From Aquiflexum balticum DSM 16537 (GTDB lineage: Bacteria; Bacteroidota; Bacteroidia; Cytophagales; Cyclobacteriaceae), in assembly GCF_900176595.1 (NCBI RefSeq), contig NZ_LT838813.1, positions 4,172,001 to 4,236,000 on the forward strand: 64,000 nucleotides of DNA, written 5' to 3'. Within the stretch, counting starts at the first letter, position 1, and every line of letters begins with the position of its first letter. Position numbers and translations under genes: made by a program. The notes under the pieces are model-generated. The model was given only the letters and a program-made list of their open reading frames with translations, had not been told where the DNA came from and ran no database searches. Shown in pieces: positions 33,708 to 64,000 of the stretch.

Positions 33708-34576
33708 CCTTTTCTTGTGTCCAAAAACATATTCATATACCAAATATGAGGCGCTGAGATTAATGAAACCAGGACAAAAAACAGCAATGTCAATTGGTCC
33801 GGGTTCATCATTTTGGAAAATATAATCAAGATCACAGATATTCCTGTTAAACTTATCAATGTAAATGGTAAAAGCTTCTTTATGAACCCTTTAAGCTTAT
33901 CCACTTTTAAATAATTTTCTAATGCTTCAAATTCTTCTTTCATGCTTGGAAGGGAATGCCAAAACCCAAAATAGATAATAAAACCAAGAAGCAGAGGTAA
34001 GTAATAGAGTAAAATGCCCAAGCACATGGATTCCAACAATAGCCCAAAAGCCTCTTTTTGAAGATTGATTAAAATGAGAATTGTTGAAAAGGAAAAGGTT
34101 AAAAGGATAAACAGAAATCCATAATTTTCGAGGAAACTCACCTCAATAATATTTGATAAAATGGATGTGGTATATTCAAAGTCTCCCCAAAGAATAGTGC
34201 TTAAAAAAAACAGACCCAAAGAAAGATAAGTTAACCTTTCAAATTTTTTTATTCTAAATTTAATGAAATGACTTTGCCCAAAGTGGTAAGCAGACATTAA
34301 AATAAATGCGAAAAGTGCCCATTTAGGAAAAATCATCCAAACTGCCAAGTAAACCACGATAATCGCCAGGTACTTGACAATGAACTTAAAAAGTTTTTCT
34401 TTATTGATTTCCGGGCTGAGCAAAAGATGGTCAATCGCTCCATGTGGAATTCCAACTAAAATCAAGATCGAGATGAAGCAAATCCACTCATATAATTCGT
34501 TTCCCTGAAAAAATAATAAATAAGTTAAACCTAAACTTAATCCAAAAATCTTTCCAATTATCTCAATGTTTTTCAT
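33704..34576 (-). CDS. blh: Brp/Blh beta-carotene 15,15'-dioxygenase
   Basis: This 290-residue integral membrane enzyme splits beta-carotene into two retinal molecules. Family motifs are VGIPHGAIDHLLL, SAYHFGQSHF and FGFWHSLPSM, whose histidines bind the catalytic iron. About eight hydrophobic helices fit the family. The start ATG lies inside the end of the lycopene cyclase gene (14-nt overlap), so the two are translationally coupled. It is the last gene of the opsin locus and its 3' end overlaps the convergent CoA-binding gene by 4 nt. The product supplies the chromophore of the neighbouring opsin. Confidence 0.93.
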   Translation of the reverse strand: MKNIEIIGKIFGLSLGLTYLLFFQGNELYEWICFISILILVGIPHGAIDHLLLSPEINKEKLFKFIVKYLAIIVVYLAVWMIFPKWALFAFILMSAYHFGQSHFIKFRIKKFERLTYLSLGLFFLSTILWGDFEYTTSILSNIIEVSFLENYGFLFILLTFSFSTILILINLQKEAFGLLLESMCLGILLYYLPLLLGFIIYFGFWHSLPSMKEEFEALENYLKVDKLKGFIKKLLPFTLISLTGISVILIIFSKMMNPDQLTLLFFVLVSLISAPHIWYMNMFLDTRKG

Positions 34577-61266: not shown

Positions 61267-61389
61267 CTTTTAAGGGTAAAAATTAAACTTCATGAGAAAT
61301 GGAGGCCCTCGTGACTACCAAGAACAGATTTTAGATTTATACCTTTGAACTGTAAAATGTCTTCAAGACTGTAAAGAACTTTGCCTTGT

Positions 61390-61402
61390 CACTTCGATCC
61401 CG
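61390..61402. repeat. Left half of a REP-like palindrome split by the IS110 element
   Basis: CACTTC-GA-TCC followed by the shared CG (61401-61402). Joined to the right half at 62635-62646 it makes an imperfect palindrome with 9 of 11 pairs and a tandem GA mismatch. The surroundings (TTGTCACTTCG on the left, GAAGTGTATTTTGCCC on the right) resemble intergenic repeats that I recall from Bacteroidota genomes. Confidence 0.65.
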
Positions 61403-61412
61403 ATAGTTACCT

Positions 61413-61595
61413 TAGATTTGATCAGTTGTATTAAACCAAGAACGGTGGTATAATTGAAAACCTGTCAGCGATCCATCGATGGCCTGAGTAGAGCACTATC
61501 GCGATATTTGGAACTGACAGGTTTAAAGAACCAAGACCTGTATAAGATATTAGTCTTACATCTGTTAAGGTTATTAGGTAACGGTTCTTATCATT
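61413..61595 (+). ncRNA. Putative bridge RNA of the IS110 element
   Basis: Three consecutive stem-loops precede the transposase. SL1 (61422-61457) pairs CAGTTGTAT with GTATAATTG (three G-U pairs) plus ACC/GGT inside. SL2 (61458-61524) has an 11-bp perfect stem (AAACCTGTCAG/CTGACAGGTTT) with an inner GCGAT/ATCGC and large internal loop. SL3 (61526-61589) has AAGAACC/GGTTCTT and an inner AAGAC/GTCTT. This matches the 5' stem-loop plus two guide-loop layout of IS621-type bridge RNAs. SL2 bases 61495-61508 are perfectly complementary to the predicted RE-CG-LE junction. Ends are approximate. Confidence 0.7.
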
Positions 61596-61617
61596 TAATA
61601 TATCTAAACGCTAAAGT

Positions 61618-62619
61618 ATGAAATTCAAAACATTTATTGGAATTGATGTCAGTAAATTGACATTAGACATTTGCCTTATTACCGCTGATGGGGTAATTGA
61701 ACACTTCAAAATTGAAAACAAAGAACTTTCCATAAAGAAGTTTTTCAAGAACTTGGAAAAGAGCTGTCTATGGGAAGATATTCTTGTCTGTGCTGAATTT
61801 ACAGGCCATTATTCCAATCCTTTGAAAGTGTTTTGCATAAGTCAAAATATTGCATTATGGTTGGAAAGCGGAGCAGAAATCAAGCTTAGATCAGGTGTCC
61901 AGAGAAGAAAAAATGATAAAATTGATGCCGAAAGGATAGTTGATTATGCGATACGGTATGTTGACAAAGCCAGGCTTCAGAATCTCGATGATAAGGTCAT
62001 TGAAACAGTCAAATCACTTAGTAATGAGAGGGATATGTATATAAGGGACCGGGCTAAATACAAATCCCAGGTAAAGGATTTTGAAGGATACATTGATTCA
62101 GATATTTATAAAGCCAAAAGCAAAAGGCTTAAAAAACAGATCCTTTCATTAACCAAATTAATTGATTCTATCGACAAACAGATAGACCAACAGTTCGCCT
62201 CCAGTGAGAAACTCACCATTCAAAAAGAGATATTGTTGTCAGTTGGAGGTGTAGGAGATAAAGTAGCAACTGAGACGATCATAGCCACACGAGGCTTCAC
62301 CAAGTTTGGTAACGGTAGGGAATTTTCCTGTCATGTAGGCGTTGCTCCATTTTCCTTTGAATCAGGTACAAGTCAGAGATCTAGGAAAAAGGTGTCCAAC
62401 AGAGCCAATAAGGAGCTTAAAAAACTCTTCCATATGGCTGCACTCTCTGCAATCAAGATGAAAGGAGAGCTTAGAGAATATTTTGAAAGGAAGGTTGCTG
62501 AGGGAAAGAATAAAATGACTGTAATAAATGCCGTTAGAGCCAAAATCATAAACAGGATTTTTGCCCTGATAAGGGATAATAGAAAATATGAAAAATCTTA
62601 TATTCCTTCTGTTGTTTAA
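61618..62619 (+). CDS. IS110 family DEDD transposase (RNA-guided recombinase type)
   Basis: This 333-residue enzyme has an N-terminal RuvC-like DEDD domain (IGIDVSKLTLDICL with Asp, AEFTGHYS with Glu, RRKNDKIDAERIVDYA with two Asp), a central coiled coil (about 120-205) and a C-terminal Tnp_20 domain (LLSVGGVGDKVATETIIA, FSCHVGVAPFSFESGTSQRSRKKVSNRANKELKK). The Ser in the ESGTS stretch is the likely covalent nucleophile. Relatives such as IS621 recombine DNA under guidance of a bridge RNA encoded in the element's leader. The frame is intact, so it may still move. It starts 23 nt after the putative RNA. Confidence 0.95.
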   Translation: MKFKTFIGIDVSKLTLDICLITADGVIEHFKIENKELSIKKFFKNLEKSCLWEDILVCAEFTGHYSNPLKVFCISQNIALWLESGAEIKLRSGVQRRKNDKIDAERIVDYAIRYVDKARLQNLDDKVIETVKSLSNERDMYIRDRAKYKSQVKDFEGYIDSDIYKAKSKRLKKQILSLTKLIDSIDKQIDQQFASSEKLTIQKEILLSVGGVGDKVATETIIATRGFTKFGNGREFSCHVGVAPFSFESGTSQRSRKKVSNRANKELKKLFHMAALSAIKMKGELREYFERKVAEGKNKMTVINAVRAKIINRIFALIRDNRKYEKSYIPSVV

Positions 62620-62634
62620 TCCATAAGAATATCG

Positions 62635-62646
62635 CGGAGAGAAGTG
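62635..62646. repeat. Right half of the REP-like palindrome at the IS110 border
   Basis: The shared CG (62635-62636) is followed by GAGAGAAGTG, the partner of the left half at 61390-61402. Confidence 0.6.
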
Positions 62647-63044: not shown

Positions 63045-64000
63045 ATGAAAGATTCACAGTCAAACATGTTTGAGCATTCTGAGGTAAAAGTAAGGCTGCT
63101 CAATCTGTACATTCAAAAATACCTGAACATCTTGAGCAGGGCTCAAGGGATTGAAAAAGTAAATCTTTACGATCTTTTTTGTGGTGAAGGAATTTATGAG
63201 AATGGAGGAGAAGGAAGCCCTATCATATTTTTGAAGGCTATCAGAGAAATCTACTATAGGAATCAAGCTGGCAAGCATAAGATTATCCAAGTGGATTGTG
63301 TATTCAACGACCTGGAAACTTGGAAGACAGAAAAAGTCAAATCTATTGTAGAAAGCAAAAAGTTGCATTACCCCATTTTTGGTGATTTGCGATTCCGAAA
63401 CGTGGATTATACCGACGCTGTGCCACTTGTAGTGGATCAAATATCCAAATCAAAGAAATCTAAAGCCTTTGTCTTTATTGATCCCTATGGATATAAGGAT
63501 ATAAGGGCGTCTCAGATTAAGTCAATCTTAGAAACAAAAAAAGCAGAAGTACTATTGTTTCTACCAACTCATCATATGTTTAGGTTTGAGAAAAAGGGTA
63601 GACCAAAGGCATTTATGTCATTTATAGAAGATCTTATTCCTGAAAAACATTGGCCTAATTCTCCAACAGGGATTGTTTTTATTGAAAACCTGAAATCAGC
63701 ATTTCGTGAATATTTAGGAGATGAATACTTTGTAGAAACCTTTATCATTACTAGAGATGTCAATCAATTTTTTTGTTTGTTCTTCTTTACCAGTCATATT
63801 TACGGCTTTGACAAAATGTTAGAAGCCAAATGGGAAATCGATTCTGAAGAAGGTAGGGGATGGTCTTATAAGATTCCTGACGCCCCAAATCTATTTAGTC
63901 CTACTAAAGCTGATAAGGTCAATAAGTTAGAGAGTTTCTTTCTCTCCTTTTTGAAAGAACCGAGATCGAACGGAGAAATTTATCAAGCTACCCTTCATCA
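63045..64000 (+). CDS. tcmP: Three-Cys-motif partner protein TcmP-like (3' end outside window)
   Basis: The frame starts at ATG 63045 (MKDSQSNMFEHSEVKVRLLNLY) and stays open for 318 codons to the edge. It shows TcmP-type blocks: YIQKYLNIL, VNLYDLFCGEGIYENGGEGSP (nucleotide/SAM-like loop), KAFVFIDPYGYKDI, TKKAEVLLFLPTHHMFRF and the start of the C-terminal winged-helix end (SNGEIYQATLHH). TcmP genes usually accompany a DUF5131 (three-Cys-motif/Gp37-Gp68) partner in defence-type loci; that partner is not visible here and would have to lie to the right. No function is proven for the pair in my knowledge. Confidence 0.8.
   Translation, partial: MKDSQSNMFEHSEVKVRLLNLYIQKYLNILSRAQGIEKVNLYDLFCGEGIYENGGEGSPIIFLKAIREIYYRNQAGKHKIIQVDCVFNDLETWKTEKVKSIVESKKLHYPIFGDLRFRNVDYTDAVPLVVDQISKSKKSKAFVFIDPYGYKDIRASQIKSILETKKAEVLLFLPTHHMFRFEKKGRPKAFMSFIEDLIPEKHWPNSPTGIVFIENLKSAFREYLGDEYFVETFIITRDVNQFFCLFFFTSHIYGFDKMLEAKWEIDSEEGRGWSYKIPDAPNLFSPTKADKVNKLESFFLSFLKEPRSNGEIYQATLH

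What the first reader, a model, noticed from the sequence alone, without database searches (positions are those of the whole stretch)
61401..61600. IS110 leader folds like a bridge RNA
Three adjacent stem-loops (61422-61457, 61458-61524, 61526-61589) fill the leader: a 5' hairpin and two hairpins with large internal loops. This is the layout of RNAs that guide IS621-type recombinases to donor and target. The element therefore looks like an RNA-guided recombination system from Bacteroidota.
Basis: partly seen in the sequence, partly recalled or inferred. Interest (0 to 1): 0.75.

Follow-up and report, generated by a model that had tools for sequence, protein, structure and literature searches.

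The report
Bridge RNA of a Bacteroidota IS110
A small jumping gene in this genome carries the hairpin RNA that, in its known relatives, pairs with both the element and its landing site to steer insertion; here it matches a palindrome repeated dozens of times in the genome, so it is a convincing new member of a recently discovered kind rather than a new kind of system.

Summary
Observation and interpretation both hold. The 208-nt leader of the IS110 transposase (61618-62619) folds into a 5' hairpin and two internal-loop hairpins (z -4.1, 0/200 shuffles). A covariance model from five leaders finds hairpins 2 and 3 in 27 of 46 sources given; 25 of 33 pairs show two-sided changes. A structure-blind alignment recovers the target hairpin (13 of its 14 pairs so supported) but not the donor hairpin. 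Loop 1 matches each element's own target: right guide at least 5/7 in 23 of 23 insertions scored, own pairs beating swapped ones. Loop 2 matches the element end. An identical second copy, empty-site homologues and an exact empty site of a relative fix the ends. Joining the ends builds a Bacteroidota-type promoter. Target: CCGATAG(C/T)TATCGG, 52 exact sites here. Catalytic D, E, D, D, S are invariant in 29 of 29 proteins. Weak spot: the window's own left target guide fits at 5-6/9. No transcript was tested. New member of a known kind; NCBIfam already names the protein RNA-guided.

The parts
61410..62631 (+). IS110-group element as the circle would carry it (1222 bp, counting one core TA)
   Evidence: two copies identical over window 61397-62634, flank comparison, empty-site homologues of the second copy; exact empty site of a relative, L070
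61399..61409 (+). left target half CCCGATAGTTA, its last two bases (61408-61409) being the core TA
   Evidence: flanks of both copies, empty palindromes CCGATAGYTATCGG
62630..62636 (+). core TA plus right target half TCGCG
61413..61420 (+). -7 box TAGATTTG (TAnnTTTG, Bacteroidota primary sigma)
   Evidence: sequence; consensus from passages of PMC9723704 and PMC7366714; in the 26 model-found relatives whose joined ends are printed, 19 have an exact TAnnTTTG and 7 are one base off
62612..62614 (+). -33 TTG; 20 nt from the -7 box only when the ends are joined
   Evidence: TTG invariant at this distance from the core in 15 of 15 distinct right ends; joined ends
61425..61591 (+). predicted bridge RNA; 5' end inferred from the -7 box (-12 to -5 of the start), 3' end from the end of hairpin 3
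   Evidence: inference; no transcript data
61422..61457 (+). 5' hairpin
   Evidence: window sequence only
61458..61524 (+). target-binding hairpin
61477..61485 (+). left target guide CGATGGCCT (L014-L017: CGATAGCTT; L056: CGATAGCCT)
   Evidence: 5/9 for this copy's own site
61500..61506 (+). right target guide CGCGATA, exact complement of TATCGCG at the right flank of this copy
61526..61589 (+). donor-binding hairpin
   Evidence: not recovered by the structure-blind alignment
61541..61552 (+). left donor guide region TATAAGATATTA (end of element CATAAGAATA; six contiguous bases shared)
61566..61573 (+). right donor guide region TAAGGTTA (start of element TACCTTAG, reverse complement CTAAGGTA)
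   Evidence: read from the sequence; TAAGGT invariant in 18 of 18 aligned leaders
61618..62619 (+). IS110 transposase, 333 aa; D10, E60, D100, D103, S249
   Evidence: Pfam, NCBIfam NF033542 above cut-off, IS621 match, residues

Best explanation
The leader is the bridge RNA of a recently mobile IS110-group insertion sequence. Excision joins the ends into a circle; the junction assembles a Bacteroidota-type promoter that transcribes the leader. The RNA binds the transposase; loop 1 pairs with both halves of a palindromic target (CCGATAG(C/T)TATCGG), loop 2 with the two element ends, and the enzyme exchanges strands just after a two-base core. Shown by sequence: conserved structure, guide-target and guide-donor matches, element ends, target repeats, catalytic residues. 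Inferred: circle, transcript, RNA binding, catalysis.
For: Fold z -4.1. Model R1 hits 27 of 46 sources at E<=0.03, 22 of them outside the five training rows (some identical copies), upstream of the transposase. 25 of 33 pairs with two-sided changes; 90% of cells paired and score 0.575, against 24-48% and 0.036-0.174 for slid partners. Structure-blind alignment: 13 of 14 target-hairpin pairs with two-sided changes. Right guide at a fixed place matches its own right target at 5 to 7 of 7 in 23 of 23 scored insertions. Own pairs beat swapped ones: joint score reached in 0 of 200000 permutations (nine relatives) and 1 of 200000 (window copy as one representative); with one element per lineage 31 of 200000, about what the unshuffled order alone gives among 7! 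orders. Left donor guide shares 8 contiguous bases with its own element end in 15 of 23 and 6 in 8 of 23. TTG invariant in 15 of 15 right ends, in some of them behind the stop codon. Second copy, identical over 1238 bases, in the same palindrome. D, E, D, D, S-G invariant in 29 of 29 proteins.
Against: The window element's own left target guide is poor: 5/9 for its site, 6/9 for the second copy. L019 has 3/9 on the left, L070 2/9 unshifted. The left donor guide of the window clade departs from the element end after ATAAGA. Left-guide scores allow a shift of 0 or 1 base, and the guide columns were chosen by eye on the same data before scoring. If the right-junction core is used instead of the left one, one row (L070) falls to 4/7. 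The pair counts use an alignment fitted to the structure; one of its measures, further pair types, is no higher than in shuffles (51 against 51.1, 299/500), and one row (L058) lacks most of the target hairpin. The structure-blind fold does not give the donor hairpin: its four pairs there join ACCU to the right donor guide and none has a two-sided change. R1 does not find the 11 more distant loci L022-L032. No transcript or activity data.
Confidence: 0.95

Rival explanations
1. The leader is a structured 5' UTR that regulates translation of the transposase, without a guide role.
For: It lies directly upstream of the start codon and would be part of the transposase mRNA; small RNAs thought to modulate an IS110 transposase (ISPpu9) are mentioned in PMC11208160 (section 5).
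Against: A regulator would not need loops that change together with each element's own insertion site and its own end. Both roles could coexist.
Confidence: 0.03
2. The bridge RNA is real in relatives, but the window copy is losing its target guide and is no longer mobile.
For: Left guide 5-6/9 against 7-9/9 in nine of nine relatives taken as representatives; no exact GATRGYTATCGCG in the genome, only matches with one mismatch.
Against: Two copies identical over 1238 bases at two different places suggest recent movement (gene conversion not excluded); right guide is an exact match to the window copy's flank; catalytic residues intact.
Confidence: 0.1
3. The stem-loops are chance folding or DNA-level inverted repeats.
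For: The opposite strand of hairpins 2 and 3 folds too.
Against: 0/200 shuffles, two-sided changes in 25 of 33 pairs, same place before the gene in 27 sources.
Confidence: 0.01

Closest known systems
IS621 and its bridge RNA (IS110 group; sections 5, 6, 7, 12 and passages of PMC11208160, passages of PMC11208158)
   Same: 5' hairpin, target loop then donor loop in a long left end; short right end; promoter formed across the joined ends; dispersed palindromic target (REP elements there); DEDD plus serine active site; in relative L070 the left junction keeps the target core and the right one the donor core, as the published strand exchange predicts.
   Different: Protein only distantly alike (phmmer E 1e-13); core TA instead of CT; in some relatives left and right junction cores differ; promoter boxes of Bacteroidota type instead of sigma-70.
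ISCro4 (PDB 9t56)
   Same: second solved IS110 recombinase matched (E 4e-13)
   Different: distant sequence; no RNA comparison made
seekRNA of ISEc21 and of IS1111 elements (passages of PMC11187229)
   Same: RNA-guided target choice, circle with abutted ends creating a promoter, natural reprogramming among relatives, no target duplication
   Different: IS1111 elements carry the RNA in the 3' end; the ISEc21 seekRNA is given as 74 nt
TIGR-Tas endonuclease (NCBIfam NF052498)
   Same: weak match of residues 139-295 (E 6e-5, 23 bits against a cut-off of 100)
   Different: full DEDD domain and IS ends present here; a repeat array was not searched for

Membership tests
IS110 family transposase | DEDD RuvC-like domain PF01548 and Tnp domain PF02371 with catalytic serine | tested here: met
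   Pfam both above cut-off; NF033542 155.5 against 140 bits; D10 E60 D100 D103 S249 correspond to the IS621 residues
IS110 group, not IS1111 | long left end, short right end, RNA in the left end | tested here: met
   left end 208 nt, right end 10 nt plus core; the only strong model hit in the window is in the left end; two weak ones are its opposite strand (E 0.05) and 33765-33871 (E 0.4)
IS110 group, not IS1111 | no sub-terminal inverted repeats of 7-17 bp | tested here: inconclusive
   by eye only: a short CTTA/TAAG pair flanks the core; no dedicated search was run
Bridge RNA | 5' stem-loop then two stem-loops with internal loops, kept by compensatory change | tested here: met
   target hairpin also on a structure-blind alignment, donor hairpin not; the 5' hairpin was folded in the window only and not tested for covariation
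[quoted passage not shown]
   right guide clear, left guide of the window copy weak (5-6/9)
Bridge RNA | second loop pairs with the donor (joined ends) | tested here: met
   left donor guide (window shares 6 contiguous bases); right donor guide TAAGGT is invariant, so no co-variation test is possible there
Bridge RNA | expressed from the promoter formed in the circle | not testable with these tools
   promoter boxes only
Bridge RNA | binds the recombinase and is needed for recombination | not testable with these tools
   none
Rfam family | match to any curated RNA family | tested here: not met
   0 matches

The most novel reading that the evidence does not exclude
In this branch of IS110 the donor and target cores need not be identical. 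In relative L070 an exact empty site (GTCGCTCA-CA-GCGGTGAGCC) shows target core CA at the left junction and donor core TA at the right one; left and right junction cores also differ in other relatives. Core choice might therefore be reprogrammable with the guide, unlike the strongly preferred CT of IS621. Mixed support: of 23 rows the right guide fits the left-junction core better in 5 (L067-L071), the right-junction core better in 7 (L018, L019, L021, L058, L059, L061, L062) and both equally in 11. I ran no literature search on this point, and the window element itself has TA on both sides.
Probability: 0.3. Interest if true: 0.5.

Novelty: new member of a known kind. Interest (0 to 1): 0.36.

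Why it matters
It adds a Bacteroidota lineage with readable guides, ends and targets, and a core other than CT, to the elements from which programmable recombinases can be chosen. The promoter boxes at the joined ends suggest how such elements express their guide RNA in this phylum. Its target palindrome is a natural repeated landing site (at least one exact site in 49 of 98 family genomes examined).

Tried and rejected
Folding energy as proof of strand: rejected, both strands of hairpins 2 and 3 fold. Viral contigs: 9 pattern stretches, none a relative. Plasmids: 2627 records with a match, best 41% identity, not used further. Rfam: nothing. One search printed ten loci in the wrong orientation; one search corrected this. 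A motif search missed the serine in many relatives; the alignment replaced it. The spacer of 15 printed for most rows is to an overlapping TACCTTAG; the spacing of 20 to TAGnTTTG follows from the joined strings there and. Empty site for the L058 group: none in 3 genomes.

Rows dropped: of 37 loci with a readable transposase (L032 gave none), one search scored 23. Left out were three copies identical to scored ones (L057, L065, L066) and 11 loci (L022-L031 and L072) whose ends or alignment were not resolved; some of these show partial guide matches by eye, others do not, and none was counted. For six rows (L002, L058, L062, L064, L069, L070) the guide letters were taken from the aligned sister copy. 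L018 has two CCTTAG starts and the first was used. Model R1 was given the window and 45 of the 72 loci then held. Changed on checking: the claim that the structure-blind fold recovers the donor inner stem was wrong and is withdrawn; the probability of the novel reading went from 0.35 to 0.3 because of the seven rows against it.

Full report
Observation. Window 61401-61600 folds far better than shuffled sequence (-55.1 kcal/mol, z -4.11, 0 of 200), with hairpins at 61422-61457, 61458-61524 and 61526-61589, the last two with internal loops. The reverse strand of the last two folds as well, so this alone was not taken as proof.

The element. The gene at 61618-62619 is an IS110 transposase (Pfam PF01548 and PF02371; NCBIfam NF033542 'IS110 family RNA-guided transposase' above cut-off) and matches IS621 (E 1e-13) and ISCro4 (E 4e-13) by sequence. 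The IS621 residues D11, E60, D102, D105 and S241 (passages of PMC11208158) correspond to D10, E60, D100, D103 and S249, invariant in 29 of 29 distinct related proteins. A second copy in the same 5.99 Mb genome is identical over window 61397-62634. Comparing flanks places the ends at 61410 and 62631 with a shared core TA. Close homologues of the second copy's site without the insertion are in the same genome, e.g. L085 CCCCGAATCCCGATAGC-TATCGGGACGGGGCAGGC.

Relatives. One genome-contig scan gave 35 loci; the closest are from Algoriphagus, Marinoscillum and Hyunsoonleella (record titles). Searches of 295, 390 and 395 genomes at family, order and class level (drawn from larger groups, overlapping) found matches at E<=1e-80 or 1e-85 in 6, 6 and 2, own genome included. 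Viral contigs gave none.

RNA structure. A covariance model of hairpins 2 and 3 from five leaders was run on the window and 45 of the 72 loci then held; it finds 27 of these 46 sources at E<=0.03. Three further matches up to E 1 are opposite-strand readings of the same region. The 19 sources without a hit are 11 more distant loci (L022-L032), the other IS110 of this genome (L051, L052) and six loci with partial transposase matches. On the 19 distinct rows 25 of 33 pairs have a two-sided change (shuffles 19.8, 3 of 500 as high), 90% of cells are paired and the score is 0.575; slid partners give 24-48% and 0.036-0.174, shuffles 68.9% and 0.224 with 0 of 500 as high; further pair types are no more than in shuffles (51 against 51.1). 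That alignment leans to the structure, and its row L058 lacks most of the target hairpin. A plain MAFFT alignment of 18 leaders gives the target hairpin with two-sided changes in 13 of 14 pairs; in the donor region it gives four pairs that join ACCU to the right donor guide instead, none with a two-sided change. The donor hairpin thus rests on the fitted alignment (outer stem: 7 of 7 pairs with two-sided changes).

Guides. For the 23 insertions scored, seven bases at one fixed place of loop 1 are complementary to the right target at 5 to 7 of 7 in 23 of 23, taking the core from the left junction; with the core of the right junction it is 4 to 7, at least 5 in 22 of 23. The left guide matches at 7 to 9 of 9 in nine of nine relatives taken as representatives, with a shift of 0 or 1 allowed. 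The 23 rows are about nine target specificities, not 23 independent cases, and the guide columns were chosen by eye on the same data. Results against: the window copy has 5/9 and its twin 6/9 on the left, L019 3/9, L070 2/9 unshifted. The window copy's right guide CGCGATA is the exact complement of its own TATCGCG flank, while L014-L017 and L056 have CCCGATA. L067 and L071, from one genome, differ at seven places in the aligned hairpins (counted by eye), three of them in the nine-base left guide, which matches its own flank at 9/9 and 8/9. Loop 2: the left donor guide shares 8 contiguous bases with its own element end in 15 of 23 and 6 in 8 of 23, the window among the 8.

Promoter. Joining the ends puts TTG (62612-62614) 20 nt before TAGATTTG (61413-61420). 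The Bacteroidota consensus is TAnnTTTG at -7 (passages of PMC9723704 and PMC7366714) and TTTG near -33 in Bacteroides fragilis; [quoted passage not shown] TTG is invariant in 15 of 15 distinct right ends although neighbouring bases vary and the stop codon lies at different distances, in L019-L021 before the TTG. The -7 box is exact in 19 of the 26 model-found rows and one base off in 7. In the integrated form the bases at the -33 distance are CAC.

Target. CCGATAG(C/T)TATCGG occurs at 52 places in this genome (46 forward and 46 reverse matches, 40 palindromic sites being counted on both strands; reversed-pattern control 0) and CCGATAGCTATCGG in 49 of 98 family genomes, own included. The close relatives L014-L017 and L056 sit in the same palindrome or, for L014, a two-base variant of it.

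Core. For relative L070 an exact empty site exists in its genome: GTCGCTCACAGCGGTGAGCC, right flank 150 of 150 identical, left 119 of 154 with the nearest part identical. The left junction is CACA-CCTTAG, the right GAGTA-GCGG: target core CA stays left, donor core TA right, as expected from the IS621 strand exchange (passages). Here target and donor cores differ in one base. Whether the guide follows the target core is mixed across relatives (see the section on the most novel reading).

Known work. Durrant et al. 2024 (sections 5, 6, 7, 12 and passages of PMC11208160) predict bridge RNAs in 85.7% of IS110 elements and describe palindromic (REP) targets. The seekRNA paper (passages of PMC11187229) reports natural reprogramming and the circle promoter. 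So this is a new member, not a new kind. Six literature searches were run; 'IS110 + Bacteroidetes + insertion sequence + palindromic' gave 8 papers and 'repetitive extragenic palindromic + Bacteroidetes + IS110' gave 1, none with a title pointing to this element; of these I saw the listings only. ISfinder could not be searched.

Noticed in passing
L074 (own genome, minus strand, about 2290-1450), L081 1430-1620; also L089, L090, L105, L117: The target palindrome also sits in copies of the 5' part of tRNA genes, where it replaces the D-arm GCTCAGCTGG: arrays read in full upstream of tRNA-Lys and tRNA-Ala; similar short contexts near tRNA-Val and tRNA-Thr. ARAGORN even calls two 78-nt tRNA-Lys that contain it. 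Origin unknown.
   Followed up: partly
66 palindrome sites in L073-L130 (52 of the own genome, 14 of the same-genus genome G001): The palindrome is extended symmetrically by at least 2 bases at 60 of 66 sites, with different letters at different sites (TC/GA, TT/AA, TA/TA, AT/AT, CC/GG), as if the arms were kept complementary. Sites in tandem arrays are not independent.
   Followed up: partly
window 61312-61404: The left flank of the element is part of a dispersed repeat with 11 further places in the genome, matches of 27 to 93 bp, 73-96% identical.
   Followed up: partly
L051-L055 (own genome): A second, distant IS110-type element (23% protein identity) with five copies in the same genome; approximate ends from flank divergence. 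R1 does not hit L051 or L052.
   Followed up: partly
L058, L059, L061, L062: In these relatives the transposase stop codon TAA ends exactly at the right core as placed here, so it seems to be completed by core or target sequence.
   Followed up: no
window 63045-63998, + strand, running off the window: Three-Cys-motif partner protein TcmP (NCBIfam TIGR04474, E 8e-43) just downstream of the element.
   Followed up: no
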